From: Rhizobium sp. BT03
GTDB lineage: Bacteria > Pseudomonadota > Alphaproteobacteria > Rhizobiales > Rhizobiaceae
Reading direction: 5' to 3'
Length of the DNA stretch: 64,000 bases
Assembly: GCF_030053155.1 (NCBI RefSeq)
Contig: NZ_CP125641.1
Coordinates: 310,001 to 374,000 of the forward strand
The notes under the pieces are model-generated. The model was not told the DNA's origin and made no database searches. It saw nothing but the letters and a program-made list of their open reading frames with translations. Shown one piece after another: positions 35,438 to 54,581 of the stretch. Each line of letters starts with the position of its first letter. Within the stretch, counting starts at the first letter, position 1. The position numbers were made by a program, and so were the translations under genes.

Positions 35438-36280
35438 TCAGCTTTTGACCGAGCCGGCGGTCATGCCCGCCAGGAAATAGCGTTGGGCAACCAGGTACAG
35501 CACCAGCAGGGGGAGGGAGCCCAGCACGCTCATCGCCATCATTTCATTCCATTCGAAAGCGTGCTGGCCCATCAGCAGCTGGATGCCGATCGGAACGGTT
35601 CTGAGATCCATCGACTTTGTCAGCGTCAGCGCGAAGAGGAATTCGTTCCACGCCAGCAGAAATGTGTAGACGGCGGTGGCGACGATGCCGGGGATGGAGA
35701 CGGGCACGATGACGCGCCAAAGCGCCGTCCAGCTCGAGCCGCCGTCGACAAGGACGGCCTCGTCCAATTCCTTCGGCAAGGTGTTGAGGTAGCCCGTCAT
35801 CAGCAGGACCGCGTAAGGCAGTGTGAAGACCATGTAGGTGAGGATCAGTGCCAGATAGGTGTCGAAGATCCTGAAGGCGACGACCATGCCGAAATAGGGG
35901 ATGAGAAGAGTGATCGGCGGAACGGTCTGGGTGCTGATGATGAAGATGTTCAAGGTGTTCTTGAAGCGGAACGAGTAGCGGCTGAATCCATAGGCGGTCA
36001 GGATGGCGATGACGAGGGTCAGGCAAGTGACGACGCCGGCGACGAAGTAGCTGTTGATGAAGAACCGCACCTTCACCGGATCGTTGAAGATCGTCAGATA
36101 GGCAGCCACGGTGAAATCCTCCGGCAAAAGCCGCGGCGGAAGAGCGAAGATTTCCGTGTTCGATTTCAGCGAGCTGAAAAACATCCAGACGATCGGGAAG
36201 GTCGAAAAGATGAGGCCGACCGCCAGCCCGAGATAGGTCAGGATGGTCGGCAGGGCCGAGTTCTTGGAACGCTTTGCCAT
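35438..36280 (-). CDS. Sugar ABC transporter permease (MalG type)
   Basis: A 280-residue permease with six membrane helices. The EAA loop is LDEAVLVDGGSSWTALWRVIVP, and the C-terminus (RYFLAGMTAGSVKS) is the MalG-type signature. ATG at 36280 has AGGTGA upstream. A GTG at 36289 overlapping the previous stop is the alternative. It is the last gene of a leftward operon of binding protein, permease, permease. No ATPase follows; the next gene is convergent. Confidence 0.93.
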   Translation of the reverse strand: MAKRSKNSALPTILTYLGLAVGLIFSTFPIVWMFFSSLKSNTEIFALPPRLLPEDFTVAAYLTIFNDPVKVRFFINSYFVAGVVTCLTLVIAILTAYGFSRYSFRFKNTLNIFIISTQTVPPITLLIPYFGMVVAFRIFDTYLALILTYMVFTLPYAVLLMTGYLNTLPKELDEAVLVDGGSSWTALWRVIVPVSIPGIVATAVYTFLLAWNEFLFALTLTKSMDLRTVPIGIQLLMGQHAFEWNEMMAMSVLGSLPLLVLYLVAQRYFLAGMTAGSVKS

Positions 36281-36285
36281 GGCGG

Positions 36286-37227
36286 TCACCTGCGCTGCTG
36301 GTGTTTGATGTAGAAGTAGGTGACGCTCATCGAAATGATGAGGATGATCATCGCACTCGCCGAAGCCAGCGAAAATTCATACTGGGAGAAGGCGAGCTTG
36401 TAGGTGAAGGTGGAGAGCACCTCCGTCGAATAGATCGGGCCGCCGCCCGTCGTCATCCAGACGAGCGGAAAAACCTGCATCGTCCAGATGAAGTCGAGAA
36501 GCGCGATGCTGATGATGATCGGCATCAGCTGCGGAATGGTGATGTACCAGAATTTTTCCAGCTCGTTGGCGCCGTCGATTCCGGCCGCCTCGTAAAGCTC
36601 CTTCGAAATGCCCTGCAGGCCGGCAAGCAGGCTGACCATGTAGAGCGGATAACCCGCCCAGATGTTGGCAAAGGTCAGGGCGTGAATGGCGGTGTGGGTC
36701 GACGAGAACCACTCGACTTTGAAGTTGATGATATGGAGCGCCATCAGCACGCTGTTGACGACGCCGTTCGGGTCGAGCAGCAGGCGCCAGATGATGGCGA
36801 TGATGACGGCCGTGAACAACCACGGCAGGATGAAGAGCACACGTAATATGCTCCTGATCAGCGGATCGACGCGGTTGGTGTTCAGCAACAGCGCAAAGGC
36901 CAGGCCGATGATGAAGTGGAAGACGACGCTCATGATCGTGAAATACATCGTCTGGCCGACCGACTGCCAGAAGACCGGATTTTCGAAGATAGTCAGGTAA
37001 TTCTGGACGCCTGCGAATGCAGCGTCCTTTTTCATGATGGCGCCGTCCATCAATGAATATTTGAAGACCATCACCATCGGGAACAGCATCAGCAGAACAA
37101 GCAAAAAGGTCGCCGGCGACACGTAGAAATACGGCACCAGCTTCCTCAAGGTGCTGTAACGAAGCCATCTTTTTTTTTTCCGCGCGTTGACTTGCGCAGC
37201 TACCAGAGCCGGAGCGGAATGATTCAT
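36286..37227 (-). CDS. Sugar ABC transporter permease (MalF type)
   Basis: A 313-residue permease. A basic N-terminal segment (NARKKKRWLRYSTLRK) precedes the first helix, and the EAA loop is LYEAAGIDGANELEKFWYITIP. A poly-A run on this strand (37169-37178) encodes the lysine cluster and is a site where frameshift or sequencing error could arise, though the frame is intact here. It is separated from the binding-protein gene by 152 bases containing a GC-rich hairpin. Confidence 0.93.
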   Translation of the reverse strand: MNHSAPALVAAQVNARKKKRWLRYSTLRKLVPYFYVSPATFLLVLLMLFPMVMVFKYSLMDGAIMKKDAAFAGVQNYLTIFENPVFWQSVGQTMYFTIMSVVFHFIIGLAFALLLNTNRVDPLIRSILRVLFILPWLFTAVIIAIIWRLLLDPNGVVNSVLMALHIINFKVEWFSSTHTAIHALTFANIWAGYPLYMVSLLAGLQGISKELYEAAGIDGANELEKFWYITIPQLMPIIISIALLDFIWTMQVFPLVWMTTGGGPIYSTEVLSTFTYKLAFSQYEFSLASASAMIILIISMSVTYFYIKHQQRR

Positions 37228-37379: not shown

Positions 37380-38627
37380 TCAGAACTTCGCGAGCCAGGC
37401 CTTCTCGGTATTGGCAGCCGCGTCCTTGGCCGACTGGCCGCCGTCGAACATCTTCTGAACTTCGACGTTCATGTCGCGCATCAGTTCTTCGGCAACCGGA
37501 AGGCCGACGAATTCGTTGGCAGGATAGCCGCTCTGGAAGATTTTGAAAGCTTCCGCGAAGATCGGGTCCGATGCCACGAAGTCGGGCTTGGCATGGACAT
37601 TGCCGGGGAAGGCATTGGCAATCGACACCAGGCGGCCGTTGACGTCGGGGCTCATCAGGTATTCCACCAGCTTCCAGGCTTCTTCCTTGTGCTTGCTGCC
37701 CTCGCTGATGCCGATGCCCCAGGACGCATAGGGCATGCCGCGTTTGCCGGTATAGCCGTCGGTGGCCGGCAAGGCGGAGATGCCGAATTTGAGCTTCGGA
37801 TTGCGCTCGCGGATGAGATTCACGTGCGCGAGGGAATCGACCATCATGCCGACGCGGCCGTTGACGAATTCCTCGACCTTGTCCTGCTCCTTCTTGGCGA
37901 AAATGCCTGGAGAAATAACGCCTTCCTTGTTGAGGGACGCCAGATAGTCGAGCGTGCCGACGACGGCGTCATTTTCGAGGTCAGGCTTGCCGTCCTTCAT
38001 CATCGAGGCGCCGGAGGCCCAGACCCAGGACATCACGTCGTTCTGGATTCCGCTCGGAGACTGCAGCGATAGCGGCAGAACCCAGCCATACTGGTTCTTT
38101 GACGCGTCGGTCATCTTCTTGGCGGCTTCGGCGAATTCCGTGCGCGTGGCCGGCAGCTTGTCGACACCCGACGCCTTGGCGATATCGAGGTTGACGAAGA
38201 CGGGGTAGACGAAGGATGCCAGCGGGAACATCACGCTCTTGCCGTCGACCTTGACGATATCGGTGATCTGGCTCTTGTCGTATTTCGCCTTCTCCATCAG
38301 GTCGTCCATGGAGGCGATCGCGCCCTGCTTGGAGAGCCCGTTGACCCAGGCGCCATCCAGGCCGACGACGTCGCTTAAGGTCCCGGAGGCGGCGCCGACG
38401 ACGATCTGGTCACGGGTCGTGGCATAGGGACCGCTGACGAGCGTCACCTTGATGCCGGGATTTGCCGCCTCGAAATCGTTCATGATGCCGCGCAGCGCGC
38501 CGGAGGGCATTTCGGGTTCCCACCATTGAATGAACTCGATGGTGGTGTCGGCAAATGCCGAGCTGGCGCAAAGCGCCCACACCGCCACGGCAGCCCGCAT
38601 GGTCACGCTGAATTTTCTGATATTCAT
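37380..38627 (-). CDS. Sugar ABC transporter substrate-binding protein
   Basis: A 415-residue family 1 binding protein. The Sec signal peptide covers residues 1-26 (cleavage after SAFA). The mature start TTIEFIQWWEPEMPSGAL and the later PYASWGIGISEGSKHKEEAWKL are typical of sugar-binding members. It heads a leftward operon controlled from the intergenic region shared with the divergent LacI gene. The ligand is unknown. The nearby esterase, oxidoreductase and TIM-barrel genes suggest an acylated or glycosidic sugar. Confidence 0.93.
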   Translation of the reverse strand: MNIRKFSVTMRAAVAVWALCASSAFADTTIEFIQWWEPEMPSGALRGIMNDFEAANPGIKVTLVSGPYATTRDQIVVGAASGTLSDVVGLDGAWVNGLSKQGAIASMDDLMEKAKYDKSQITDIVKVDGKSVMFPLASFVYPVFVNLDIAKASGVDKLPATRTEFAEAAKKMTDASKNQYGWVLPLSLQSPSGIQNDVMSWVWASGASMMKDGKPDLENDAVVGTLDYLASLNKEGVISPGIFAKKEQDKVEEFVNGRVGMMVDSLAHVNLIRERNPKLKFGISALPATDGYTGKRGMPYASWGIGISEGSKHKEEAWKLVEYLMSPDVNGRLVSIANAFPGNVHAKPDFVASDPIFAEAFKIFQSGYPANEFVGLPVAEELMRDMNVEVQKMFDGGQSAKDAAANTEKAWLAKF

Positions 38628-40054: not shown

Positions 40055-40990
40055 TCAACGCGTGAGCGCCGGGTCCATCGTGCGCCATGCCGTTGCAATG
40101 GCTTCGAGCGCCTCCTGCGCCTCGGGAATGGCCCGTCTCTTCGAGACGAAGCCATGGATCTGTCCGGGCCAGGTCCGGCTTGTCGCCGGGGCTTCTGAAC
40201 TCAGCCGCTCGGCATAAAGGGCGCCTTCGTCGAACAGCACGTCGTGGCCAGCAAGGATCACGAAGGCCGGCGCCACACCGGCGAGCGATGCCGCGCGAAG
40301 CGGCGAGGCCCGCCAGTCGGAGCGGCTTGCCATGTCCGGCAGATAGTGATCCCGGAACCATCGCATCGCCGCTGCCGTCAGGCCGAAACCCTCTGCATAG
40401 CGCAAGTAGCTGTCGCTTGCCTGCAACTGGTCGGTCACCGGATAGATCAGCACCTGGCCGATGACATCAGGCACCTCTCCGTCCCGCGCCAAAAGGGCGA
40501 TGACGGCGGCGAGATTTCCGCCGGCACTATCGCCGCCCACGACAATTCGTGCCGGATCTATGCCGAGGGCGTCAGCCTGATCCCTCATCCAGATGAGCGT
40601 GGCTGCGCAATCTTCGATCGCTGCCGGAAAGGGGTGTTCGGGGGCGAGGCGATAGTCGGGCGAGATCACCACGGCGCCAGCCATATTGGCAAGCGTCCGG
40701 CAGATGTCCTCATGGGTTTCCGGCGCGCCGATCACAAAGCCGCCGCCATGGAGATAAAGCAAGGCGGGGGCCCGCTCGCGCGGCGCCGTGCAGCCGCGCC
40801 ATATCTTCACCCGGATTGCGCCGGCATGCCTCTCCGACATCTCGGCCACATCCTCGATCGGCCACTGGATGTCTGCGAAACCGTCCAGATATTGTTGCCG
40901 CGCCAGCGCCGGCGTGCAGTTTTCCACCGGCTCCTGCGGCTCATCAGGCCATGCCAGTGCACGTCTTGCGGATTCATCCAGCTGCGTCAT
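40055..40990 (-). CDS. Alpha/beta hydrolase, hormone-sensitive-lipase-like esterase
   Basis: A 311-residue cytoplasmic esterase. The oxyanion-hole motif HGGGFVIG (residues 81-88) and nucleophile Ser155 in GGDSAGG define the HSL (family IV) group. Asp in GHDVLFDEG and His in GQIHGF complete the catalytic triad. It probably removes small acyl groups, perhaps from an acetylated or feruloylated sugar. Its start overlaps the stop of the oxidoreductase gene (ATGA), so the two are co-translated. Confidence 0.9.
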   Translation of the reverse strand: MTQLDESARRALAWPDEPQEPVENCTPALARQQYLDGFADIQWPIEDVAEMSERHAGAIRVKIWRGCTAPRERAPALLYLHGGGFVIGAPETHEDICRTLANMAGAVVISPDYRLAPEHPFPAAIEDCAATLIWMRDQADALGIDPARIVVGGDSAGGNLAAVIALLARDGEVPDVIGQVLIYPVTDQLQASDSYLRYAEGFGLTAAAMRWFRDHYLPDMASRSDWRASPLRAASLAGVAPAFVILAGHDVLFDEGALYAERLSSEAPATSRTWPGQIHGFVSKRRAIPEAQEALEAIATAWRTMDPALTR

Positions 40991-42123: not shown

Positions 42124-42193
42124 TGAAAACCTGACCTTGCCGTTCCGTGCTCGGAGAGCCGCGGATGCGCGTTGAGTTCGCGAGGAATAAATT

Positions 42194-42213
42194 ATGTTGA
42201 CGCACGCTAACAT
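42194..42213. promoter_or_regulatory. 20-base palindrome in the divergent oxidoreductase/isomerase promoter region
   Basis: ATGTT, CG and their complements form a symmetric pattern ATGTT-NN-CG-NN-CG-NN-AACAT at 42194-42213, 71 bases before the oxidoreductase ATG. The CG-centred dyad resembles LacI-family operators, so the LacI protein at 39.0-40.0 kb is a candidate ligand. Confidence 0.5.
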
Positions 42214-42405
42214 TTTCCCCTACGAAATGACAAGACGTTGGGAGGCGTCGCAGTTGCCCGAGGGAAGAGGCCTCGCCGGGGATCTCGCTCCCTTCTCGAA
42301 GAAGGCTTTTCGGCAATGCCGGATAGCCGGTGCCGCGACGATCGCCGGCGCGGAAGCTCCGGTTTCGATATCGGCTGTCACCAACGACTAGGTCAGGACC
42401 AAGAT

Positions 42406-43224
42406 ATGAACGATGTTGCGCTGAAGATCGGCTGCCAGACATTCACCTGGGAGATGCTGGGCAAGGGGTGGAGCGGCGGGCCGGATGACCTGGTGCGCGC
42501 CATCGCCGATGGCGGATATGCCGGTCTCGAAATTACCGACACGATGATCGGTCACTACGCGCTCAAGCCCGGCGACTTTGCCCGGACTCTTGCGGAGGCC
42601 GGTTTAACGCTGGTTTCCTTTGCCTTCGGCTCGGCTAGCGGTTTCACGCTGACGGAAAAGATCGCTTCCGATCTCGAGATGGCGCGGCGATGGGTGGATT
42701 TCGCGGCGAATTTTCCCGGTGCGATGGTGTCGATGGGATCGGCCACGGTCGTTTCGGATGGGCCGCGTGAGGAAAAGTTTGCCATCGCGGCGGAGTGCTA
42801 TAATCGCGCGACCGAGATCGGACGATCGGCCGGCGTCGCCGTTGCCGTGCACCCTTCCTCGCACCACAATACGCTGCTCTTCACCAGGGCCGACTATGAC
42901 CGGCTGTTTGCTCTCCTGGATCCACGCGTGGGCTGGGTGCCGGATACCGGCCATATCCTGCGGGGCGGCCAGGAGATCGGCGAGACGCTTTCGGCCTATC
43001 GCAACCGCATCCGCTACGTGCATCTGAAGGATGTCGACGCCGGGGGGATCTGGGCGATGCTCGGCGAAGGCGTCTGCGACGTGCCCGCCGTGATTTCGGC
43101 CGTCCGGCAGGCGCCGGAGTTCACCGGCTGGATCGTGGTGGAGGAAGAGTCGGACCATGCCGGAACCGATCCTGCCGCCGCCGTTCGCAAGAATCTCGAG
43201 ACACTTCGAGAGCTGGGGTTTTAG
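42406..43224 (+). CDS. Sugar phosphate isomerase/epimerase-family TIM barrel (xylose isomerase-like)
   Basis: A 272-residue protein beginning ALKIGCQTFTWEML, with the metal-site pattern of the AP-endonuclease-2/xylose-isomerase-like barrel: Glu in GLEITD, His in AVHPSSHHNT, Asp in VPDTGHIL, His in VHLKDVD and Glu in VVEEESD. It resembles inosose dehydratase (IolE)-type proteins. Such enzymes isomerise or eliminate keto-sugars. Divergent pairing with a Gfo/Idh/MocA dehydrogenase suggests it acts on that enzyme's keto product. ATG 42406 fits the family length. Confidence 0.87.
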   Translation: MNDVALKIGCQTFTWEMLGKGWSGGPDDLVRAIADGGYAGLEITDTMIGHYALKPGDFARTLAEAGLTLVSFAFGSASGFTLTEKIASDLEMARRWVDFAANFPGAMVSMGSATVVSDGPREEKFAIAAECYNRATEIGRSAGVAVAVHPSSHHNTLLFTRADYDRLFALLDPRVGWVPDTGHILRGGQEIGETLSAYRNRIRYVHLKDVDAGGIWAMLGEGVCDVPAVISAVRQAPEFTGWIVVEEESDHAGTDPAAAVRKNLETLRELGF

Positions 43225-43240
43225 CCGATCTCGTTTCCCC

Positions 43241-43296
43241 GCGCCGGCCGGCGCCAAAGCCTCTCCCGGCTCGCTTTTCGCGTGAAGAGAGAGGCT
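43241..43296. terminator. Convergent intergenic hairpins
   Basis: A perfect palindrome GCGCCGGCCGGCGC (43241-43254) is followed by AGCCTCTC (43258-43265) pairing with GAGAGGCT (43289-43296). The region separates two convergent genes by 77 bases and probably terminates both transcripts. Confidence 0.45.
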
Positions 43297-43301
43297 GAAG
43301 A

Positions 43302-44063
43302 TCACGCGTAACGGACCTCCACGCCGAGTTTGTCCAGCCGGTGGCGGATGCTGTGCGGCATGTTGCTGTCGGTGATGATCAGATCGACGCGCGACAGCGA
43401 GAAGGCTTTGGAGGAGGCGCCGATATCGAACTTGCTCGAATCCGCCACGAGCACGACGCGCCGGGCCATACGAACCAGGTTGCGCTTGGTCCGCGCAATA
43501 TCCTCGGAGACATCGACGACGTCGAAGGCCTGATCGATCGCATGGGCGCTGACGAAGGCCTGGTGGGCGACGAGCCCGCCGACCGCCTTGTCGGAATCCG
43601 AAACGATCGTGCTGACGGTGCTGGGAAACACCCGGCCGCCGATCATGTGCACGTCGAGCCCCGGCCGGTACATCAGATGCTGGGCGATGTTCATCGCCGT
43701 CGTCGCCACCACGACGTTGTTGACCGGCGGCATCTGCATGGCCACCTGCAGCAGCGTCGAGCCGCTATCGAAGACGATCGACTGGTTGTCGATGATCTGC
43801 CGCGCGGCCATCTGGGCAATGCGCCGCTTCGCATCGAAATTGCGCTGCATGCGCTCCTCGAAGGCTGCGGCCGGCGAGTCGGACGGCAGGGCGATTGCCC
43901 CGCCATGCGTTTTGATCAACTGCTTCTTCGCGTCCATGATTTCGAGATCGGAGCGGATGGTGACTTCCGAAACCTCGAAGAATTCCGCGAGCTGGCGGGT
44001 GCGGGCCTGACCGACCCGTTGAAGTTCCAGCATGATCTGCTGCCGCCTCTGTTCTGCAAGCAT
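43302..44063 (-). CDS. DeoR family transcriptional regulator
   Basis: A 253-residue repressor. The HTH is MLAEQRRQQIMLELQRVGQ then RTRQLAEFFEVSEVTIRSDL (about residues 1-55). The DeoRC domain has FDSGSTLLQVAMQM and HMIGGRVFPSTVSTIVSD, the sugar-phosphate sensor. The start at 44063 fits the family; the frame extends upstream without a ribosome site. It is divergent from the aldolase/kinase block, which it probably controls through the CGAAA-type repeats between them. Confidence 0.92.
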   Translation of the reverse strand: MLAEQRRQQIMLELQRVGQARTRQLAEFFEVSEVTIRSDLEIMDAKKQLIKTHGGAIALPSDSPAAAFEERMQRNFDAKRRIAQMAARQIIDNQSIVFDSGSTLLQVAMQMPPVNNVVVATTAMNIAQHLMYRPGLDVHMIGGRVFPSTVSTIVSDSDKAVGGLVAHQAFVSAHAIDQAFDVVDVSEDIARTKRNLVRMARRVVLVADSSKFDIGASSKAFSLSRVDLIITDSNMPHSIRHRLDKLGVEVRYA

Positions 44064-44311
44064 GTGCGATCCCGGCTGCCGCGCGCCTCGTTGCGATAAG
44101 GCGACTTTTGAAAAACGAAAGATAGCCGTCTGGTGGTGCGGCTTAGACTGCATAAATAGCCCCAGCTAGCAAAAAATGCACGTCAAAAATTCTCTTTCCG
44201 CGTGAAAACGAAAGAATTCGAAATATTGAACATTTGTTTGTTTTCGAGTTAGGATTTTCTCAACAACGACGCCGGCACTCCCAACGCCGCAATCGCAAAG
44301 GAAGCATCGCC
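44064..44311. promoter_or_regulatory. Divergent control region with direct repeats (DeoR operator candidates)
   Basis: The 11-mer AAAACGAAAGA occurs twice in the same orientation (44112-44122 and 44205-44215). A reverse partial copy, TTTTCG, lies at 44241-44246. DeoR-family proteins commonly bind multiple CGAAA/TTTCG half-sites, sometimes with looping, so these are the best candidates for the adjacent DeoR regulator. Confidence 0.55.
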
Positions 44312-45112
44312 ATGGGTCTCGGAACCAAAGTCCGCCTCGCACGCCTGTTCTCGAACCCATCGGGGCATTTGTTCGGGGGCGCGGTCGATCATTTTGTCGG
44401 TTACGGCAATGTTCGTGAGGGCGGGCTTGCCGATCTGCCGGGCGCGCTCAGACGCGTCATGGCGGGTGGCCCCGACTACATCAGCATCCAGCCCGGCGCT
44501 GCGCGTCACCTCTGGGCGGATTATGCCGGAAAGGCAGCCCTCGTCATTCAGGGCGGCTGCTTCACCGCCGACGACCGGATTCGCCAGCTCATCGCCACTC
44601 CGGAAGATGCGGTGCGTTATGGCGCGGACGCACTGGCTGTCGCCATTCCGGTGCGCGGCGCCACCGAAGGAGAGTACATCCGCTGGCTGACCGATACGGT
44701 CAACGCCGCCGCCCGCTTCGAAATGCCGGTCGTCGCCCATGTCTATCCCCGTGATTTCTCCGACGGCGGCAAGATCGTGTTCACCCCGGATGAAATCGCC
44801 TATGCGGTGCGCATCGGTTTCGAAGCCGGCGTCGACGTGATCAAGGTCGGCTATACCGGAGATTTCGAATCCTTCCGCGAAACCGTCGCGACTTGCCCGG
44901 TCCCGGTGGTGATTGCCGGCGGCCCGAAGACCGATACGCTGCTCGGCGCGCTCGTCCAGACATCGGAAGCGTTGCGCGCCGGCGCCAAGGGCGCGGTCGT
45001 CGGCCGCAATCTCTGGGGCCATGGCGATACGACCATGGCCGCGCGCGCCTTCAAATTCGTCATTCATAAAGGCATGGCGCCGGAGGAGGCGCTGGCGGCT
45101 GCCGGCGCTTGA
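44312..45112 (+). CDS. Class I aldolase, DhnA/FbaB/LsrF family
   Basis: A 266-residue TIM-barrel aldolase. The probable Schiff-base Lys178 lies in DVIKVGYTGD. GGPKT (203-207) and AVVGRN form the phosphate-binding end, and AHVYPRDF provides a further catalytic region. The family cleaves phosphorylated ketoses (fructose-1,6-bisphosphate, or phospho-autoinducer-2 for LsrF). Adjacent PfkB kinase and DeoR regulator genes make a phosphorylated ketose the likely substrate. The start is set at ATG 44312 rather than 26 codons earlier. Confidence 0.87.
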   Translation: MGLGTKVRLARLFSNPSGHLFGGAVDHFVGYGNVREGGLADLPGALRRVMAGGPDYISIQPGAARHLWADYAGKAALVIQGGCFTADDRIRQLIATPEDAVRYGADALAVAIPVRGATEGEYIRWLTDTVNAAARFEMPVVAHVYPRDFSDGGKIVFTPDEIAYAVRIGFEAGVDVIKVGYTGDFESFRETVATCPVPVVIAGGPKTDTLLGALVQTSEALRAGAKGAVVGRNLWGHGDTTMAARAFKFVIHKGMAPEEALAAAGA

Positions 45113-45115
45113 GAC

Positions 45116-46057
45116 GTGTCGCCCCCGCTCCAGGTTCTGGGCTTCGGCGCCCTTGCCATCGATGACATCATCTATGTCGATCGGGGGCTTTCGGCCGGCA
45201 AGGGAAAGGTGACCAAGCGGGCCACGGACCATGGCGGCAACGTGGCGACGGCCCTTGTCACTGTCGCCAGGCTTGGTGGGCGCGCCGGCTTCATCGGCTG
45301 GCTCGGCGAGGATCCCGCGGCCGATCCGGCCGGCGCCGAGCTCGAGCGCGAGGGCGTCGACATATCCCTGGCGCCGCGCCATGCCGCTGCCGCGCCGATC
45401 CGCTCGGTGATCACCGTCGGTCCTGACGGCGACCGGTTCATAGCCTATGACGACGATGTGCTGCACGGGACGTCGGATGCACTGCCCGACGATGTTTTGA
45501 TGCAGGCCCCGGTCCTGCTGATCGATGGCTATGCCGCACACTCGGAAAGGGTGGTGGCACGGGCGCGCGCGCTGGGCCTGGCCGTGATAGCCGATATCGA
45601 ATGGACGGTCGGTGCCGCGACGGACCGGCTCCTCGCCTGCGCCGACCATCTGGTGCTGCCGCTCGCTTTCGCGAGGGAGTACACCGGCGAGACCGATCCG
45701 GCGGCCATTCTGGAGCAGCTCTGGTCAGCGGAGAGGTCCGCTGTCGTGCTGACCGATGGCGAACGAGGGGCCTGTCTCCGCCAGAAAGGCGATCCCACCC
45801 GGTGGCATTTGCCGGCCTATCAGGTTCAAGCGGTGGACACGACCGGCGCCGGCGACTGTTTTCACGGCGCCTATGCTCTTGCCCTTGCCGAGGGGAAGAG
45901 CCCGCTCGATTGCGTAGCCTATGCCACAGCGGCTGCCGCCATTTCCGTGACCGCGCGGGGAGGGCGCAGGGGCCTGCCGGACAACCGGACGTGCCTCGCA
46001 TGGATGGCAGGGGGAAATGCACCCGTGGCGTGCCCCATCCCGGGATGTCACGATTAG
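45116..46057 (+). CDS. PfkB/ribokinase-family carbohydrate kinase
   Basis: A 313-residue kinase starting at GTG 3 bases after the aldolase stop. GGNVATALVTVARLGG is the first family signature and DTTGAGDCFHGAYALA the second, with catalytic Asp247. It would phosphorylate a ketose or ketose-phosphate, giving the substrate for the aldolase, as in tagatose, fructose or sulfo-sugar routes. The C-terminus (NAPVACPIPGCHD) is less typical. Confidence 0.9.
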   Translation: MSPPLQVLGFGALAIDDIIYVDRGLSAGKGKVTKRATDHGGNVATALVTVARLGGRAGFIGWLGEDPAADPAGAELEREGVDISLAPRHAAAAPIRSVITVGPDGDRFIAYDDDVLHGTSDALPDDVLMQAPVLLIDGYAAHSERVVARARALGLAVIADIEWTVGAATDRLLACADHLVLPLAFAREYTGETDPAAILEQLWSAERSAVVLTDGERGACLRQKGDPTRWHLPAYQVQAVDTTGAGDCFHGAYALALAEGKSPLDCVAYATAAAAISVTARGGRRGLPDNRTCLAWMAGGNAPVACPIPGCHD

Positions 46058-46374
46058 CGTGCCGTTGACAGGTGTCGACCTTGTTGGCCGCCCGAGCGGA
46101 ACCACACGCCGATCGCAGGGTTTGAAAGATCCTTCAGCCGCTGCCGCGTTGGCCATAAAAATTACGCGCGTAAAAAAATATTAGCGCGCAAATAAATGGC
46201 ATAAATGTAAGATATTTCAAATTGATATGCTGATTTTTCGATAATTTATGACGAAATTCTCTCGATTCTTTTGTTGACTTTGACGCTCAGGCCTGAGCCT
46301 TCTTGTCGAAAGGATCGGAGGTGGCGGGGGGCGCCGATCGAAGACGTGAGCGGACGGATACGGGAGGACGAGAC
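46058..46374 (+). promoter_or_regulatory. Promoter region of the orphan-ATPase operon with repeated operator-like sites
   Basis: These 317 bases are AT-rich at 46155-46275. TTACGCGCGTAA (46162-46173, a perfect palindrome) and TTAGCGCGCAAA (46181-46192) are two related sites 19 bases apart. A TTGACT hexamer (46274-46279) precedes the perfect 14-base palindrome GCTCAGGCCTGAGC (46285-46298). No gene was found. The pattern suggests control of the next operon by at least one dimeric regulator. Confidence 0.55.
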
Positions 46375-47520
46375 GTGGCCGTGGTTGTATTAGACAAGAT
46401 CTGCAAGACCTATGGAAACAGCTACCATGCGATCAAGGATCTGAGCCTGACGATCCATGACGGCGAGTTTCTGATTCTGGTCGGTCCGTCCGGATGCGGA
46501 AAATCGACCGCGCTCCGCATGATTGCTGGGCTTGAGGAGATCAGCAGCGGAACGTTGAGCATCGGCGGCCAGGACGTTGTCGATCTTGCGCCGAAGGACC
46601 GGGACATCGCCATGGTCTTTCAGAGCTATGCGCTTTATCCGCACATGACCGTGTTCGACAACATCGCCTTTTCGATGAAGCTGGCCGGAAAGAGCAAGGC
46701 CGAGCGAACCAAGCGCGTGCACGAGATCGCCAAGATCCTGCAGCTGGAAACCTTGCTCGGCAACAAGCCCGCCCAACTTTCCGGCGGCCAGCGCCAGCGT
46801 GTTGCGATGGGGCGCGCCATGGTCCGCGAACCCGCGGCATTCCTCATGGACGAGCCGCTTTCCAACCTCGATGCCAAGCTGCGTGTGCAAATGCGCGCCG
46901 AAATCGCAAGCCTGCAGCGACAATTGGGGGTAACGACGATCTACGTGACGCACGACCAGACCGAAGCCCTGACCATGGGCGACCGTGTCGCCGTACTGAA
47001 GGGCGGCGTGCTTCAGCAGGTGGACACGCCCAAGGCCCTCTATCACCGCCCGGTCAATGCCTTCGTCGCAGGCTTCATCGGCTCGCCGTCGATGAACCTG
47101 TTCGAAGGGCGTCTGGAGGGTATGCGGATCCATTTGCCGGGATTCTCCATCCCCTTGTCCGACGGCGCCTTCGAGCGGGCGTCCGGCCTTTCCGCCTTCG
47201 AGGGAAAGGCGCTGATCTTCGGCGTTCGGCCCGAGGATCTCTACGACAGCCAGCTGCCGTCCGGGGCGTCCTATCCGACGATCCCGGTTGTGGTGAAGTC
47301 GATCGAGGAGCTCGGCTCCGAGTTGATCGTGCATTTGAAGATCGACGCGGTTCGGATCGATTCGGGCGACCCCGACGCCGTCGAAGACCTGAGCGGTGCG
47401 GCCAACGCCGTCGCCCGCTTCGAAGCCGTCAGCACGGTCGAGACAGGCCAATCGATCAATCTGGCAATCGATCCGGCGAAACTTCATTTTTTCCATCCTC
47501 AAACGCATGTGGCGCTGTGA
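46375..47520 (+). CDS. MalK/UgpC-like ABC transporter ATPase (orphan)
   Basis: A 381-residue ATPase starting at GTG behind GGGAGGA. Walker [11 protein letters not shown]-loop [11 protein letters not shown], signature LSGGQRQR, Walker B AAFLMDEPLS and VTHDQTEAL are intact. The C-terminal OB/TOBE region extends to the end. No permease or binding-protein gene is adjacent, which is unusual. It may serve the two transporters in this window that lack an ATPase (22.8-25.9 kb and 35.4-38.6 kb). An in-frame TTG at 46303 would add 24 residues without family similarity. Confidence 0.93.
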   Translation: MAVVVLDKICKTYGNSYHAIKDLSLTIHDGEFLILVGPSGCGKSTALRMIAGLEEISSGTLSIGGQDVVDLAPKDRDIAMVFQSYALYPHMTVFDNIAFSMKLAGKSKAERTKRVHEIAKILQLETLLGNKPAQLSGGQRQRVAMGRAMVREPAAFLMDEPLSNLDAKLRVQMRAEIASLQRQLGVTTIYVTHDQTEALTMGDRVAVLKGGVLQQVDTPKALYHRPVNAFVAGFIGSPSMNLFEGRLEGMRIHLPGFSIPLSDGAFERASGLSAFEGKALIFGVRPEDLYDSQLPSGASYPTIPVVVKSIEELGSELIVHLKIDAVRIDSGDPDAVEDLSGAANAVARFEAVSTVETGQSINLAIDPAKLHFFHPQTHVAL

Positions 47521-47573
47521 AGCGAAGACGAAACCGGCGTTCATCTTCAACATCCGACCTAGAGGGCTTATCG

Positions 47574-48650
47574 ATGCCAGCAAAACAGGAACGGCGCCTC
47601 CGCATCGGCGTACTGGGAGCCGGCCAGATTGCCCAGGCCGCGCACTTCGAGAGCTGCACGAAGGCTGTGAATGCCGATCTCTATGCGATCTGCGACGTCG
47701 CCGCGGATCTCCGCGAACGAATGGCGATCACCCATGGAGCGGAAAAAACCTACGACGATTATGACAGGATGCTGGCCGATCCCGACCTTGATGCGGTGAT
47801 CATCGCCACCGCCGATGCCTTTCACGTCCCGGCCTCGATCCGCGCCCTTCAGGCGGGCAAGCATGTGCTGTGCGAGAAACCGGTCGGTGTCACCGTCGAG
47901 GAATGCCTTGAATTGAAGGCTGAAGTCGAGACGTCGGGAAAGGTGTTTCAGGTCGGGCATATGAAGCGTTTTGACGCGGGGCTCCAGGCGGCGAAATCCT
48001 TCATCCGCGACGAGATGGGTGAGATGGTTGCTCTGAAGGCATGGTATTGCGACAGCACCCACCGCTATCCGATGACCGATGCGGTCCAGCCGCTGATCGT
48101 TGCCAGCGCCAATGCGCGAAAACCCGCCGCCAATCCGAAAGCCGACCTGCGCCGCTACTACATGCTGGCGCATGGTTGCCACCTGATCGACACGGCGCGT
48201 TATTTTGCCGGCGACATCGTTTCCGTCACCGCGCGTCTGAGTGAGCGAGCCGGCATCTGGTGCTGGTTCGTCGACGTGGAGTTTGCCTGCGGCACACTCG
48301 GTCACCTCGATCTCACCGTCCAGGTGCGCATGGACTGGCACGAAGGTTTCCAGATCTATGGCAGGAGCGGCAGCATTTTGGGCAAGACCTATAACCCGTG
48401 GTACTACAAAACCAGTGAGGTCGACATTTTCCGGGAAGCCGATGGCGCAACCCATCGCGTTCTCGGCGCCGACGGTCATTTCTATCGCCGTCAGGTCGAA
48501 GGCTTTGCCCGCACGATTCTGGATGGCGCAGTGATGGAGGGCGCCGACATCGATGATGGCCTGGCCTCCGTACGGGCCATGGTCGCCGTCGCGCGCTCCG
48601 TCGAAACCGGCAAGCCGGTCGCGCTCACCGACGTCACGGGTGGCGTGTGA
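47574..48650 (+). CDS. Gfo/Idh/MocA-family NAD(P)-dependent oxidoreductase
   Basis: A 358-residue dehydrogenase. The Rossmann motif is IGVLGAGQIAQAAHF, and CEKPVGVT carries the cofactor-site Lys. LAHGCHLIDTARYFAG gives the D-x-x-x-H-like catalytic segment (His and Asp near residues 200-204). It follows the orphan ATPase and overlaps by one base the TIM-barrel gene downstream, so the two products probably act in sequence: oxidation of a glycoside or polyol to a keto compound, then isomerisation or elimination. Confidence 0.9.
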   Translation: MPAKQERRLRIGVLGAGQIAQAAHFESCTKAVNADLYAICDVAADLRERMAITHGAEKTYDDYDRMLADPDLDAVIIATADAFHVPASIRALQAGKHVLCEKPVGVTVEECLELKAEVETSGKVFQVGHMKRFDAGLQAAKSFIRDEMGEMVALKAWYCDSTHRYPMTDAVQPLIVASANARKPAANPKADLRRYYMLAHGCHLIDTARYFAGDIVSVTARLSERAGIWCWFVDVEFACGTLGHLDLTVQVRMDWHEGFQIYGRSGSILGKTYNPWYYKTSEVDIFREADGATHRVLGADGHFYRRQVEGFARTILDGAVMEGADIDDGLASVRAMVAVARSVETGKPVALTDVTGGV

Positions 48651-49495
48651 TGAAGCTCGGCATCTTCGCAAAGACCTTCGAGGGAACGGAACCCTCGACC
48701 GTCCTCAATTCGGTCGCCCGGGCCGGCTTCGCCGCAGCACAATACAACATGGCCTGCTCGGGCCTGCCGCCGATGCCGGAGACGATGACCGAGGCTCAAG
48801 CGCGTGCGGTCACCGAGGCGGCGCAGAGCAGTGGCGTCGAGATCGTCGCCGTTTCCGGCACCTACAACATGATCCATCCCGATCCCGCCCTGCGCCAAAC
48901 CGGCCTTCGCAACCTGGCGACGCTGGCTGCGCGCTGCGCCGGCATGTCGACCGCCCTGATCACGCTCTGCACCGGCACCCGCGACCCCATCGACCAGTGG
49001 AAAGCGCATGCCGACAACGACACGCCGGCAGCCTGGCGCGATCTTCTCGAAGCCATGGGGGCGGCCATCGAGATCGCCGAGCGCTATAATGTGGATCTGG
49101 CTATCGAGCCGGAGCTTGCCAATGTCGTCAACTCGGCTGAGAAAGCCCATCGGCTGATCGCAGCGCTCAATAGCCCCCGCGTCAAGATCGTCCTCGATCC
49201 GGCCAATCTTTTCGAGGTCGCAACGTTGGATGAGCAGCGGCGCATCGTTTCCTCAGCCATCGATCTTCTCGCCGATCGGATCGTCATGGCGCATGCGAAA
49301 GACCGCAATCCCGACGGCAGTTTCGCGACCGCCGGCAAGGGCGTTCTCGACTACGCGCATTATCTCGGCCGTCTCAAGGCAATCGGCTTTGGCGGCAGTC
49401 TCGTCACGCACGGTCTTTCGGCCTCGGAAGCGGCCGGTGTGGCGTCCTTCCTAAAAAGGGCGCTCGACGGCGAAGGCGCGGGGAGAGGACGATGA
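48650..49495 (+). CDS. Sugar phosphate isomerase/epimerase-family TIM barrel
   Basis: A 281-residue barrel of the xylose-isomerase-like superfamily. The start (KLGIFAKTFEGTEP) leads into metal-site residues Glu in AIEPELAN, Asp in VLDPANLF, His in MAHAKDRN and a C-terminal THG. ATG 48650 overlaps the oxidoreductase stop. The function is not recognisable beyond the superfamily. Coupling to a Gfo/Idh/MocA enzyme points to a keto-sugar substrate. Confidence 0.87.
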   Translation: MKLGIFAKTFEGTEPSTVLNSVARAGFAAAQYNMACSGLPPMPETMTEAQARAVTEAAQSSGVEIVAVSGTYNMIHPDPALRQTGLRNLATLAARCAGMSTALITLCTGTRDPIDQWKAHADNDTPAAWRDLLEAMGAAIEIAERYNVDLAIEPELANVVNSAEKAHRLIAALNSPRVKIVLDPANLFEVATLDEQRRIVSSAIDLLADRIVMAHAKDRNPDGSFATAGKGVLDYAHYLGRLKAIGFGGSLVTHGLSASEAAGVASFLKRALDGEGAGRGR

Positions 49496-50301
49496 GACGG
49501 GCTGAAGCGTTCGAAACCAGCGACGGAACCATTCTCAACGTCGATATGGCCGGCGAGGGCGCGCCGGCAATATTCCAGCACGGCCTCTGCGGAGACGCGA
49601 CGCAGACGGACGAGGTCTTTCCGCGCGAAAGCGGATATCGCCGGGTTACGGTCGAAGCCCGCGGCCACGGGCGTTCCGGGGCCGGCAATGTCGAGCGGCT
49701 GTCGATTTCGGCCTTCTGCGATGATATTGCCGCTTATATCGAGAAGAACTTTGCGGCGCCGGTCGTGATCGGCGGCATCTCGATGGGGGCCGCGATCGCC
49801 TTGCGTCTCGCCGTCAAACGGCCCGATCTCGTCAAGGCACTGATCCTGGCAAGGCCGGCCTGGCTGACGGCATCGGCGCCGGACAATATGGCGCCCAATG
49901 CCGAAGTCGGGCGGCTTCTGAAAACCCTGCCACTGGGCAAGGCAAAGCAGGCATTCCTTGCCGGGCCGGTCGGCGTGCGGCTCGCCGCCGAGGCGCCGGA
50001 CAATCTCGCCTCGCTTGCCGGGTTTTTCTCCCGCACGCCTCTGGATGTGACCGCCGAACTGCTGACCAGGATCTCCAGCGACGGCCCTGGCGTCACCGAC
50101 GCGGAGGTCGGCAATCTCGCCCTGCCGGTGCTCGTCATCGGCCATGATCGCGACAGCATCCACCCTCTCCGGCATGCGCGTGCGCTTGCCGCGCGGATTG
50201 CCGGCGCGCGTTTCGTGCAGATCACGCCGAAAACGGAGAGCCGTCCGCAATATGTTGCCGACTTCAGGCTCGCCGTCGGCAATTTTCTAAAGGAGCTCTG
50301 A
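49492..50301 (+). CDS. Alpha/beta hydrolase
   Basis: A 269-residue hydrolase that overlaps the preceding gene by four bases (ATGA). The oxyanion segment is FQHGLCGDA, the nucleophile elbow is GGISMGAA (Ser near residue 100), and the acid region is VIGHDRDSIHP. The usual late catalytic His is not obvious: candidates are His in IHPLRHA, while the C-terminus reads ITPKTESRPQY. It may be a lactonase or esterase acting on an oxidised sugar of this pathway. Confidence 0.85.
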   Translation: MRRAEAFETSDGTILNVDMAGEGAPAIFQHGLCGDATQTDEVFPRESGYRRVTVEARGHGRSGAGNVERLSISAFCDDIAAYIEKNFAAPVVIGGISMGAAIALRLAVKRPDLVKALILARPAWLTASAPDNMAPNAEVGRLLKTLPLGKAKQAFLAGPVGVRLAAEAPDNLASLAGFFSRTPLDVTAELLTRISSDGPGVTDAEVGNLALPVLVIGHDRDSIHPLRHARALAARIAGARFVQITPKTESRPQYVADFRLAVGNFLKEL

Positions 50302-50305
50302 AACA

Positions 50306-51007
50306 ATGCCTGTCCCCTCCAAGACCTGGATCGCCGATCTTCCGAAGGATCGACTGATTGCCGAGTTCTCCGTCTGGTCGGCCGATCTCATGCGTCTCGC
50401 CGATGATCTCGCGCGTGTCGATCCTCACGTCGACATCCTCCACATCGATGTCGCCGATGGCCATTTTGCGCCGGCGATGTTGTTCTTTCCCGATCTCGTC
50501 GCCGCTGTGCGCAAAGCCTCCACGCGCCCGATCCATGTTCACTTGATGGTTGCCGATAGCATTATCCTGTCGCAGATCGAGCAGTTCGCCGATGCCGGCA
50601 GCGACCTGATCAGTCTTCATGTCGAAAACGAAAGCGTCGCCGACCAGGCTCTCGATCTTCTCGATCGCCGCGGTGTCGCAGCCGGCATGGTTCTCAAGGT
50701 CGATACCCCCGTCGAGCGGATCGAGACATATGCTTCCCGGCTGCGTTTTGTGACGCTGCTCGGCACGGCGATCGGCGTCAAAGGCCAGGGCCTCGACGAG
50801 AAGGCCGGCGCCCGGCTTCAACAGGCAAAGCAGATCATCGCCGGCTGCGGTGCGGCCGATCGGATCGTGCTGGCGGCCGATGGCGGCATTCGCGAGCACA
50901 CTGTGCCTCTGCTTCGCCAATCCGGTGCGGAAACGGTCGTTCTCGGTTCCCTGGCTTTCAATGCGCCGTCGCTCAATGAGCGGATGGCATGGATGCGCGC
51001 ACTCTAA
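50306..51007 (+). CDS. Ribulose-phosphate 3-epimerase family protein
   Basis: A 233-residue TIM barrel of the RPE/AlsE family. HIDVADGHFAPAM carries the metal-binding His and catalytic Asp, HVHLMV the next ligand His, and AADGGI the second catalytic Asp, followed by the phosphate-binding VLGSLAF. It epimerises C3 of a ketose phosphate. Its neighbour, a ROK kinase, parallels the AlsE/AlsK pair of D-allose use, so allulose-6-phosphate or a similar ketohexose phosphate is a possible substrate as well as ribulose-5-phosphate. Confidence 0.9.
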   Translation: MPVPSKTWIADLPKDRLIAEFSVWSADLMRLADDLARVDPHVDILHIDVADGHFAPAMLFFPDLVAAVRKASTRPIHVHLMVADSIILSQIEQFADAGSDLISLHVENESVADQALDLLDRRGVAAGMVLKVDTPVERIETYASRLRFVTLLGTAIGVKGQGLDEKAGARLQQAKQIIAGCGAADRIVLAADGGIREHTVPLLRQSGAETVVLGSLAFNAPSLNERMAWMRAL

Positions 51008-51021
51008 CCGGCGGTCTTCAC

Positions 51022-51987
51022 ATGCAGCAGGTTGCCATTGGCATAGACCTCGGCGGAACGCAGGTGCGCGCCGCCCTTGTCGACGAGCAAGGCAGGATCC
51101 TGATGCGATTGGCCGAGCCAACGGATGCGCTGGCCGGGCCCGACCGGGTGCTCGCCCAGATTTGCGGCCTCGCCGATCGGCTGCTTGCGGCATCGAAGAC
51201 TGCTTCGGTCGTGGGCGTCGGCGTATCCGCCCCAGGCCCGCTCGATACGGTCGCCGGTGTCGCGACCGATATCCCGACCCTTTCCGGCTTCGTCGATTTT
51301 CCGCTGAAGGCGGAACTGCAGACGCGGTTTCCGTTTCCGGTCGATCTCGAAAACGACGCCATTGCCGCGGCGATCGGCGAGTGGCAGTTCGGGATCGGCA
51401 AGGGACTTGATAACCTCGTCTATGTCACGGTGAGCACCGGGATCGGCGGCGGCGTTATCTCGGACGGCCGGGTGGTGCGCGGCCGCAAGGGCATGGCAGC
51501 CCATGTCGGCCACATGTCGGTCATGCCGAACGGAGACCTCTGCCCTTGCGGCAACAGGGGCTGTTTCGAGGCCTATGGATCCGGACCGGCATTTGCGCGG
51601 CGCGCCCAAATGCGGGCCATGGAAAGCCGAGAGACGACGTTAGGCAGCAACGGCGGCGCCATCGACAGCCGCAGCGTTTTTGCGGCAGCCAGAAATGGCG
51701 ATCGGCTCGCCAACCAACTGGTCGACGAGGAAGCGGAAATTCTCGGACGCGGCTTCACCAGCCTGATCCACATCTTCAGTCCCGATATCATCGTCATGGG
51801 GGGAGGGCTCTCCCACGAATTCGACCGTCTGCAACCGGGCATTCAAGCCTATATCGGCCAATGGGCGATGCCGGCATTCAAGGATGTCAAGGTGATGCTG
51901 GCGGCGTTGGATCAGAACTCGGGCCTTGTCGGCGCGGCGGCTCTGGCGTTCTTGGCGGGGAAGGTCGCTCCGATCGGTCGTCCTTAG
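51022..51987 (+). CDS. ROK-family sugar kinase
   Basis: A 321-residue kinase. The ATP phosphate loop is IGIDLGGTQVRAALV, ENDAIAAAIGEWQFG holds the catalytic Asp, VTVSTGIGGGVIS follows, and the zinc cluster CPCGNRGCFEAYGSG is the ROK signature. It probably phosphorylates a hexose (glucose or allose type) as the first cytoplasmic step. An upstream in-frame ATG (50989) overlaps the epimerase gene. The ATG at 51022 fits the family start better. Confidence 0.92.
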   Translation: MQQVAIGIDLGGTQVRAALVDEQGRILMRLAEPTDALAGPDRVLAQICGLADRLLAASKTASVVGVGVSAPGPLDTVAGVATDIPTLSGFVDFPLKAELQTRFPFPVDLENDAIAAAIGEWQFGIGKGLDNLVYVTVSTGIGGGVISDGRVVRGRKGMAAHVGHMSVMPNGDLCPCGNRGCFEAYGSGPAFARRAQMRAMESRETTLGSNGGAIDSRSVFAAARNGDRLANQLVDEEAEILGRGFTSLIHIFSPDIIVMGGGLSHEFDRLQPGIQAYIGQWAMPAFKDVKVMLAALDQNSGLVGAAALAFLAGKVAPIGRP

Positions 51988-52026: not shown

Positions 52027-53040
52027 TCAGGGCGGTGGCGCGGTACTTTCCCTGAGGATCAGTTCGACCGGCCACAATTCATGGACCTCATCCGCGGCAC
52101 GTCCGGCGATCAGCTGTAGCGTTAACTCGGCACAGCGCGTGCCCGCAGCACGCATCGAGGATCGTGTTGTCGAAAGCGACGGCACCATGTTTTCGGCCGT
52201 CAGATAAGGGAAGACGTCGTCATGGGCGATGACCGACACATCCTGTCCCACCGTCATCCCGAGCGAACGGACGGCGCGGTAAACACCAAGCGCCGTCATC
52301 GTGGAGCCCGCGACGATCGCGGTCGGCGCATTTGCTCTCTCGAGGAAGGAGCGAGCATGGCGAAAGCCGCTTTCGTCGGAGAATTTATCGCAGACCATCA
52401 GGTTGGGATCGGCATTCAGCCCACGCTCCTGATGGGCCAGCCGAAAGCCCTGTTCGCGATGGATCGAATAGGTCTTGCCCCTGAGGCCGTTGATCATGGC
52501 GATGCGCCGGTGCCCGAGATCGAGCAGGTGTTCGGTGGACCTGCGCACGGCACCTTCATTATCGATATCGAGCCAGGCGTGAACGTGCTCGGTCTCCGAG
52601 CGGCCGTGAACCAGGAAGGGCACGCCGAGGCTGTTCAGCATCTCGATCCTGGGGTCCCGGGGGCGTGGCGAGTGAATGATCACCGCATCCACCCGGCGGC
52701 TTTCGACTAGGCGTCGATAGGCCTGGATCTCGTCGTCATCATTGTGTGCGGTGATGGGTGTGATGAGAATATCCGTATCGGCCGTTTCCAGGCGCTGCGC
52801 CATTCCCGACACGAATTCAGCGAAATGAATTTCTCCCGAACGTCCCATCATAACGCCGACCGCTCCGGCTCGTCCGGTCTTTAGGCGCACGGCATTGATG
52901 TCGGGGCGATAGCCGAGCCGCACTGCTTCGCTTGCCACCCGGGCACGCGTGGCTTCGCTCACCTCTGGATAGCCGCTGAGCGCACGGCTGACCGTCGTCG
53001 GAGAAAGCCCAAGCTGCTTTGCAAATTCACGAAGTTTCAT
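52027..53040 (-). CDS. thuR: LacI family regulator of the thu operon
   Basis: A 337-residue LacI-type regulator. The HTH is LREFAKQLGLSPTTVSRALSGYPEVSE, and the hinge and sensor domain start at AGAVGVMMGRSGEIHFAEFV. It is divergent from thuE, matching the known thuR-thuEFGKAB layout of Sinorhizobium. It probably binds the two TTGAAATCGATTTCAA-like sites in the intergenic region and is released by trehalose or a related disaccharide. The start is set at ATG 53040. Confidence 0.9.
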   Translation of the reverse strand: MKLREFAKQLGLSPTTVSRALSGYPEVSEATRARVASEAVRLGYRPDINAVRLKTGRAGAVGVMMGRSGEIHFAEFVSGMAQRLETADTDILITPITAHNDDDEIQAYRRLVESRRVDAVIIHSPRPRDPRIEMLNSLGVPFLVHGRSETEHVHAWLDIDNEGAVRRSTEHLLDLGHRRIAMINGLRGKTYSIHREQGFRLAHQERGLNADPNLMVCDKFSDESGFRHARSFLERANAPTAIVAGSTMTALGVYRAVRSLGMTVGQDVSVIAHDDVFPYLTAENMVPSLSTTRSSMRAAGTRCAELTLQLIAGRAADEVHELWPVELILRESTAPPP

Positions 53041-53119
53041 CGGATGTCTTCTTTGTCCAGGCAATCAATGGACGATGCGTTGGAGATGCGCAACGGGCAC
53101 CGGCTCAATCAGATAATAA

Positions 53120-53135
53120 TTGAAATCGATTTCAA
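53120..53135. promoter_or_regulatory. LacI-type operator O1 (thuR side)
   Basis: TTGAAATCGATTTCAA is a perfect 16-base palindrome with the central CG typical of LacI-family operators. It lies 80 bases upstream of thuR, which suits autoregulation. Confidence 0.8.
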
Positions 53136-53277
53136 GTTAATCGGCTTGGAGCTGGGGCTTTAGAGGCTATTAAGTTTCCCTTAAGCTGTATATCTTGCTA
53201 AAATCGCCGTTTGGCGCAACTGTGAAGTGCTAATTTGGCGGGTTGACGCGGTCCATGCCTTCTGCAATGTTCTGTCG

Positions 53278-53293
53278 GCCAAATCGATTTCAA
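53278..53293. promoter_or_regulatory. LacI-type operator O2 (thuE side)
   Basis: GCCAAATCGATTTCAA matches the O1 palindrome at 13 of 16 positions. It lies just downstream of a candidate thuE promoter (TTGACG 53243-53248, 17 bases, AATGTT 53266-53271) and 16 bases before the ATG, a natural repressor position. The two centres are 158 bases apart, so looping is possible. Confidence 0.75.
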
Positions 53294-53309
53294 TTTCTGG
53301 GAGGAGATC

Positions 53310-54575: not shown

Positions 54576-54581
54576 GATTCC

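What the first reader, a model, noticed from the sequence alone, without database searches (positions are those of the whole stretch)
43302..51987. Unassigned DeoR-controlled catabolic block with two kinases, an aldolase, an epimerase and an oxidoreductase-isomerase pair
Seen: DeoR divergent from a DhnA-type aldolase and PfkB kinase, then an orphan ABC ATPase, a Gfo/Idh/MocA dehydrogenase, a xylose-isomerase-like barrel, an alpha/beta hydrolase, an RPE/AlsE-type epimerase and a ROK kinase, the last five nearly without gaps. Known: ROK plus AlsE-like proteins occur in D-allose use, and PfkB plus DhnA-type aldolase in ketose phosphate cleavage. Inference: a route that oxidises a glycoside, isomerises and hydrolyses it, phosphorylates the hexose, epimerises C3, phosphorylates again and splits it to trioses. 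I recognise no named pathway with this exact set, so it is the best candidate for an undescribed system.
Basis: partly seen in the sequence, partly recalled or inferred. Interest (0 to 1): 0.72.

Follow-up and report, generated by a model that had tools for sequence, protein, structure and literature searches.

The report
Conserved rhizobial sugar-catabolism gene island
Some root-nodule and related soil bacteria share an island of about 16 genes that looks like the import machinery and enzymes for eating one specific sugar-like compound whose identity is still unknown.

Summary
The genes are as described, but the unit is larger: about 16 genes, window 35438-51987, adding an SBP and two permeases (partners of the "orphan" ATPase), a LacI regulator and a second hydrolase, Gfo/Idh and TIM barrel. 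The same region lies on pRL12 of Rhizobium johnstonii 3841. In 148 Rhizobium genomes the aldolase (43) occurs only with the IolE-like TIM barrel (71), and that only with the epimerase (84): strict nesting. Gene order varies while content is mostly kept, so the parts probably form one system; presence is patchy. A putative DeoR box marks mainly the aldolase-kinase promoter (69 of 69 loci). The D-allose-type route is not supported: ROK and RPE proteins score well below the allose models. Best reading: importer plus an oxidise / beta-eliminate / rearrange front end (Gfo/Idh enzymes with TIM barrels, one related to IolE and 3-keto-glucoside lyase), feeding a ROK kinase and C3-epimerase and, in a subset, a PfkB kinase and class I aldolase. 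The substrate is unknown; a glycoside or cyclitol fits best. Searches of an open-access library found no description. An undescribed pathway built from known enzyme families.

The parts
35438..36289 (-). perm2, sugar ABC permease
   Evidence: ORF; annotated homologue; conserved in island
36286..37227 (-). perm1, sugar ABC permease
   Evidence: ORF; annotated homologue; conserved in island
37380..38627 (-). SBP, sugar-binding protein of the importer
   Evidence: best PDB sequence match SmoF, 72 bits
39001..40035 (+). LacI-family regulator
   Evidence: ORF; annotated homologue; conserved with hydA-gfoA
40055..40990 (-). hydA, HSL-type alpha/beta hydrolase; S155, D250, H279 conserved (catalytic roles inferred)
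   Evidence: NCBIfam LipP1 309.5 bits, cut-off 350; residues
40987..42135 (-). gfoA, Gfo/Idh/MocA oxidoreductase (exact start not settled)
   Evidence: best PDB match scyllo-inositol/L-glucose dehydrogenase 66 bits, then DgpA1
42406..43224 (+). timA, PF01261 TIM barrel of the IolE / 3-keto-glucoside-lyase branch
43302..44063 (-). DeoR-family repressor
   Evidence: PF00455 and PF08220
44209..44223 (+). putative DeoR operator CGAAA-N5-CGAAA
   Evidence: 69 of 69 DeoR|aldolase intergenic regions, 0.8 expected (motif was read off this region); sequence
44312..45112 (+). ald, DhnA-type class I aldolase; Lys180 conserved in 73 of 73
45116..46057 (+). pfkB, PfkB-family sugar kinase
   Evidence: PF00294; best PDB match sulfofructose kinase 118.7 bits
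46375..47520 (+). ATPase of the importer (MalK/UgpC type)
   Evidence: just upstream of SBP in 55 of 91 sequences
47574..48650 (+). gfoB, Gfo/Idh/MocA oxidoreductase
   Evidence: PF01408; IolG model 135.6 bits, cut-off 355; best PDB match DgpA
48650..49495 (+). timB, PF01261 TIM barrel; E153, D183, H215, H254 invariant
   Evidence: fold near UlaE/DTE epimerases, YcjR and AtHYD
49492..50301 (+). hydB, alpha/beta-hydrolase fold without a conserved late His
   Evidence: S97, D221, H224, K247 conserved in 81 sequences
50306..51007 (+). rpeB, ribulose-phosphate 3-epimerase family; H46, D48, H79, D192 conserved
51022..51987 (+). rokB, ROK-family sugar kinase, nearer glucokinase than allose kinase

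Best explanation
A catabolic island for one imported carbohydrate. An ABC importer (SBP, two permeases, ATPase) brings in the substrate. Gfo/Idh enzymes (gfoA, gfoB) oxidise a hydroxyl to a ketone. timA uses that ketone for metal-assisted beta-elimination of an aglycone or of water, as IolE and the 3-keto-glucoside lyases do. timB, with hydB, rearranges or hydrates the product, and a Gfo/Idh enzyme may reduce it. rokB phosphorylates the freed sugar and rpeB epimerises C3 of the resulting ketose phosphate into central metabolism. In a subset of species a further DeoR-controlled branch phosphorylates a ketose (pfkB) and cleaves it to trioses (ald). Shown here: families, conserved residues, co-occurrence, synteny, a putative DeoR box. 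Inferred: every reaction, their order, and the substrate class (glycoside more likely than cyclitol).
Confidence: 0.5

Rival explanations
1. A cyclitol pathway parallel to inositol catabolism: Gfo/Idh oxidises a cyclitol or its methyl ether, IolE-like timA dehydrates the ketone, a hydrolase opens the ring, PfkB phosphorylates and the class I aldolase cleaves, in the order of iolG-iolE-iolD-iolC-iolJ.
For: timA's best solved relative by sequence is IolE and its best NCBIfam model is IolE, 77.7 bits; gfoB's best model is IolG, 135.6 bits; gfoA's best PDB match is a scyllo-inositol dehydrogenase.
Against: All scores are far below the curated cut-offs (355, 290). No IolD or IolB model hit any protein scanned. 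The ROK and RPE genes have no place in it, yet rpeB is the most widely kept gene of the three traced and the aldolase the least.
Confidence: 0.2
2. Two or three independent pathways that merely share an address: an importer-kinase-aldolase ketose pathway (A1) and a separate Gfo/Idh-TIM pathway (A2+B).
For: A1 sits alone in 4 of 80 loci and is unlinked to rpeB in G261 and G292; B occurs with other neighbours in 6 of 15 loci; the DeoR box is regular only at the aldolase promoter; Palleronia has A1+A2 without B.
Against: One-way nesting: 0 of 43 aldolase genomes lack timA or rpeB, even when unlinked. Shared descent inflates this, so the hypergeometric values are not used as proof.
Confidence: 0.18
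3. One reading: oxidise a glycoside, isomerise, hydrolyse, phosphorylate the hexose, epimerise C3 of the 6-phosphate as in D-allose use, phosphorylate again and cleave.
For: rpeB matches AlsE at 30% identity and keeps conserved H46, D48, H79, D192; a ROK kinase is present.
Against: Allose kinase and AlsE models are missed by wide margins; no RpiB match in the island; aldolase absent from 41 of 84 rpeB genomes; hydB lacks a conserved late His.
Confidence: 0.08
4. A sulfosugar pathway of the sulfo-EMP type.
For: Best PDB matches of PfkB and SBP are sulfofructose kinase (118.7 bits) and the sulfoquinovosyl-glycerol binder SmoF (72 bits).
Against: Of the sulfonate-binding residues of YihV (recalled as K27, N109, R138), K27 is kept in 83 of 83, but N109 falls in a gap in 83 of 83 and R138 is Gly (43) or Ser (40); the aldolase shows no real similarity to YihT (E 0.59); no significant YihS match.
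Confidence: 0.02

Closest known systems
Levoglucosan cluster lgdA-lgdB1-lgdB2-lgdC (Bacillus smithii; PMC7676230, passages)
   Same: Two Gfo/Idh oxidoreductases, two sugar-phosphate-isomerase-type TIM proteins, ABC importer, LacI regulator; oxidation, elimination, hydration, reduction logic.
   Different: gfoA and gfoB score 70.3 and 67.9 bits against a cut-off of 650 for levoglucosan dehydrogenase; the island adds ROK, RPE, two hydrolases, PfkB and aldolase.
Agrobacterium GlycDH-AtOGE-AtHYD-Gfo operon (PMC10628242, passages)
   Same: timA shares the His-Asp-His-Glu type of metal site; timB's fold relatives include AtHYD.
   Different: No flavoprotein GlycDH among the families found; the catalytic-base position is Ser in timA; the AtHYD chain is 58 residues longer than timB.
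E. coli ycj cluster (YcjN to YcjW)
   Same: ABC importer, Gfo/Idh 3-dehydrogenase (gfoB-YcjS 25%, E 1e-19), TIM-barrel epimerase YcjR, repressor.
   Different: timB-YcjR not significant by BLAST (E 0.11); no sugar phosphorylase found here.
myo-Inositol pathway (IolG, IolE, IolC, IolJ)
   Same: timA nearest IolE; Gfo/Idh, PfkB kinase and aldolase steps.
   Different: No IolD or IolB hit; class I aldolase (IolJ is class II, from recall); all models below cut-off.
E. coli D-allose operon als
   Same: RPE-family epimerase and ROK kinase.
   Different: Kinase and epimerase below the curated cut-offs; the als transporter is of another type (recalled) and rpiB has no match in the island.

Membership tests
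Levoglucosan (Lgd) pathway | Levoglucosan dehydrogenase LgdA | tested here: not met
   NF052479 cut-off 650; gfoA 70.3, gfoB 67.9
Levoglucosan (Lgd) pathway | Two Gfo/Idh, two sugar-phosphate-isomerase-type TIM proteins, importer and LacI regulator together | tested here: met
   cluster make-up from PMC7676230 passages
3-keto-glycoside beta-eliminase (AtOGE type) | Metal ligands His, Asp, His, Glu on strands 5-8 | tested here: met
   H149, D180, H206, E246-E248 invariant in nine sequences; matched by motif and by HMM alignment to IolE and lyases, not by superposition on AtOGE
3-keto-glycoside beta-eliminase (AtOGE type) | Catalytic His two residues after the first metal His | tested here: inconclusive
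   Ser151 there; H153 and H154 follow
3-keto-glycoside beta-eliminase (AtOGE type) | Elimination activity on a 3-keto-glycoside | not testable with these tools
   needs an enzyme assay
D-allose pathway (als) | D-allose kinase | tested here: not met
   NF007251 111.7 bits, cut-off 253
D-allose pathway (als) | D-allulose-6-phosphate 3-epimerase | tested here: not met
   NF007266 108.8 bits, cut-off 271
D-allose pathway (als) | RpiB-type isomerase in the cluster | tested here: not met
   E. coli RpiB matched none of the island proteins at E 1
myo-Inositol catabolism (iol) | IolG and IolE | tested here: not met
   135.6 of 355 and 77.7 of 290 bits
Sulfo-EMP sulfoglycolysis | Sulfonate-binding residues of the kinase (recalled K27, N109, R138) | tested here: not met
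   K kept 83 of 83; N109 in a gap in 83 of 83; R138 Gly 43, Ser 40
Sulfo-EMP sulfoglycolysis | YihT-type aldolase and YihS isomerase | tested here: not met
   YihT E 0.59; YihS only chance-level matches
DhnA-type class I aldolases | Schiff-base lysine (role recalled; LsrF K203) | tested here: met
   aligned Lys180 in 73 of 73
DhnA-type class I aldolases | A named subfamily (FBP aldolase, ADH synthase, LsrF) | tested here: not met
   136.1 of 430, 163.3 of 299.45, 95.2 of 297 bits
thuEFGKAB operon | Belongs to the same unit as the island | tested here: not met
   20 of 32 genomes with thuB at 94% or more identity lack the aldolase (by eye)

The most novel reading that the evidence does not exclude
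An undescribed modular catabolic pathway of rhizobia that cleaves a plant-derived glycoside (or cyclitol) not by hydrolysis but by oxidation, ketone-driven elimination and rearrangement, and routes one product through a ROK kinase and an RPE-type C3-epimerase and, where the DeoR module has been added, another through a kinase and class I aldolase to trioses.
Probability: 0.42. Interest if true: 0.65.

Novelty: new variant of a known kind. Interest (0 to 1): 0.5.

Why it matters
Rhizobia carry many plasmid-borne catabolic systems with unknown substrates, thought to matter for life around roots (general knowledge). This one recurs as a set in Rhizobium, Shinella and Mesorhizobium, sits on pRL12 of the model strain 3841, and is directly testable there. 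If the front end is redox elimination, it widens the known uses of that chemistry and shows how its products can be routed onward.

Tried and rejected
D-allose route: models missed. Sulfo-EMP: tempting because two best PDB matches are sulfosugar proteins, rejected on residues. Link to the neighbouring thuEFGKAB-like operon (52027-59483), whose relatives make 3-keto disaccharides (PMC6515357 passages; the 2013 Ampomah paper was seen only as a citation): rejected as part of the unit because 20 of 32 genomes with that thuB (94% or more) lack the aldolase, and thuB relatives are in 148 of 148 genomes, 77 of which lack timA. One DeoR regulon for the whole block: the box is absent from gfoA|timA (0 of 29) and ATPase|gfoB (0 of 17), and rare at pfkB|ATPase (3 of 80), ATPase|SBP (5 of 55) and SBP|LacI (5 of 22); no LacI-type palindrome shared between promoters stood out. 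Family-level sample: aldolase in 4 of 199, too sparse for co-occurrence. Literature: nine answered searches of an open-access library; only looked for the 3841 locus tags (pRL120010-pRL120039), the others for enzymes and pathways. The only mention found is pRL120027 (aldolase) and pRL120033 (labelled D-allulose-6-phosphate 3-epimerase), both marked NE in two conditions of a transposon screen (PMC5118466 passages); that these are ald and rpeB is my inference from gene order. Fold matches of timA and timB are many and tied; AtOGE itself (8BVK) is not in the rows shown. Limits: the genome search scored at most 17 to 19 candidates per genome.
Full report
What is there. In R. johnstonii 3841 the region is RL_RS33030-RL_RS33105 on pRL12.

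The unit is bigger. In the same genomes the block is accompanied by two permeases, an SBP, a LacI regulator, an HSL-type hydrolase (hydA), a second Gfo/Idh oxidoreductase (gfoA) and a second PF01261 protein (timA). I split the genes into A1 (DeoR, aldolase, PfkB, ATPase, SBP, two permeases), A2 (LacI, hydA, gfoA, timA) and B (gfoB, timB, hydB, rpeB, rokB). The orphan ATPase belongs to the SBP-permease set: they are neighbours in 55 of 91 sequences examined and separated here by rearrangement.

Conservation. A scan of GTDB representative genomes with an aldolase profile gave 104 confirmed loci, of which the best 80 were kept; they are therefore chosen for the aldolase. Of these 80, 70 carry ald and pfkB, gfoA and timA, and all of gfoB, timB, hydB, rpeB; 3 carry A1+A2 with part of B (L064, L066, L079: rpeB and rokB but no gfoB-timB-hydB seen); 4 carry A1 alone; 1 A1+A2 without B; 1 A1 with B; 1 A1 with part of B (flanks of 10 kb limit what can be seen). 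hydA is undetected in several loci. At least four gene orders occur. The 4 genomes with A1 alone hold rpeB elsewhere (4 of 4 at 1e-40). Exceptions: Lichenibacterium (whole genome, no rpeB at 1e-40) and the Palleronia plasmid. In a sample of 199 genomes of the family, mostly one per genus, the aldolase is in 4, so the island is patchy.

Phylogenetic profile. In 148 Rhizobium genomes (the number answered for a request of 200), the aldolase is in 43 (E 1e-90), timA in 71 (1e-80) and rpeB in 84 (1e-60). The sets are strictly nested: 43 of 43 aldolase genomes have timA and rpeB, and 71 of 71 timA genomes have rpeB; aldolase lies within 12 kb of rpeB in 41 of 43 and timA in 71 of 71 (lists copied by hand from the three outputs). 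Shared ancestry inflates any P value. Of 15 loci looked at more closely, 9 have A2+B with an SBP and permeases related to thuEFG at 34-46% identity (and a thuK-like ATPase at 50-51% in 6 of them) and no aldolase or PfkB match in the stretch; two of these nine (L105, L106) are from genomes G261 and G292 that hold A1 elsewhere. The other 6 have B with other neighbours. So within Rhizobium B looks like the core, A2 an extension, and A1 a further extension with its own importer.

Regulation. The box CGAAA-N5-CGAAA (up to one mismatch), read off this promoter, is in 69 of 69 DeoR|aldolase intergenic regions (0.8 expected from mononucleotide shuffles) and rare or absent elsewhere. DeoR therefore most likely controls mainly the aldolase-kinase operon; LacI may serve the rest, but no operator for it was found.

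What it is not. Not the D-allose operon, not sulfo-EMP, not the inositol operon and not the levoglucosan operon, by the tests in the membership table. It resembles the levoglucosan and AtOGE systems in gene make-up without being a proven member.

Standing. One functional system: likely (about 0.8, my estimate). Redox-elimination front end: about even. Substrate: unknown. Novelty in print: nine answered searches of an open-access library found no description; most subscription papers could not be searched.

Noticed in passing
window 57553-58341: thuA here is 97% identical in protein (96.6% in DNA, over just the gene) to a second thuA on contig C1 of the same genome, while the thuB beside each is only 63% identical; looks like recent gene conversion or single-gene replacement.
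   Followed up: partly
window 52027-59483: A thuEFGKAB-like operon with its own LacI regulator follows the island here; its thuB occurs at 94% or more in 32 of 148 Rhizobium genomes, 20 of them without the aldolase.
   Followed up: yes
L005, L046, L052, L061 and others (23 loci in one cluster): A tagatose-kinase-like PfkB gene and a GatZ-like gene often lie beside the island in Mesorhizobium, Pararhizobium and Palleronia; names are from the Palleronia annotation and my reading of the sequences.
   Followed up: partly
window 21189-26899: Separate operon: DapA-family protein, GntR regulator, SBP, two permeases and another PfkB kinase; relatives of its DapA, GntR and SBP lie near the island in five Mesorhizobium loci.
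   Followed up: no
window 28752-35396: ugp-like ABC operon with a glycerophosphodiester phosphodiesterase, a second DeoR regulator and a HAD-IIB hydrolase (ORFs, annotation of the pRL12 homologue).
   Followed up: no
L007 and L010: Module B (gfoB-rokB) occurs next to other importers, one ribose-type by annotation and one maltose-type by my reading of the ORFs.
   Followed up: partly
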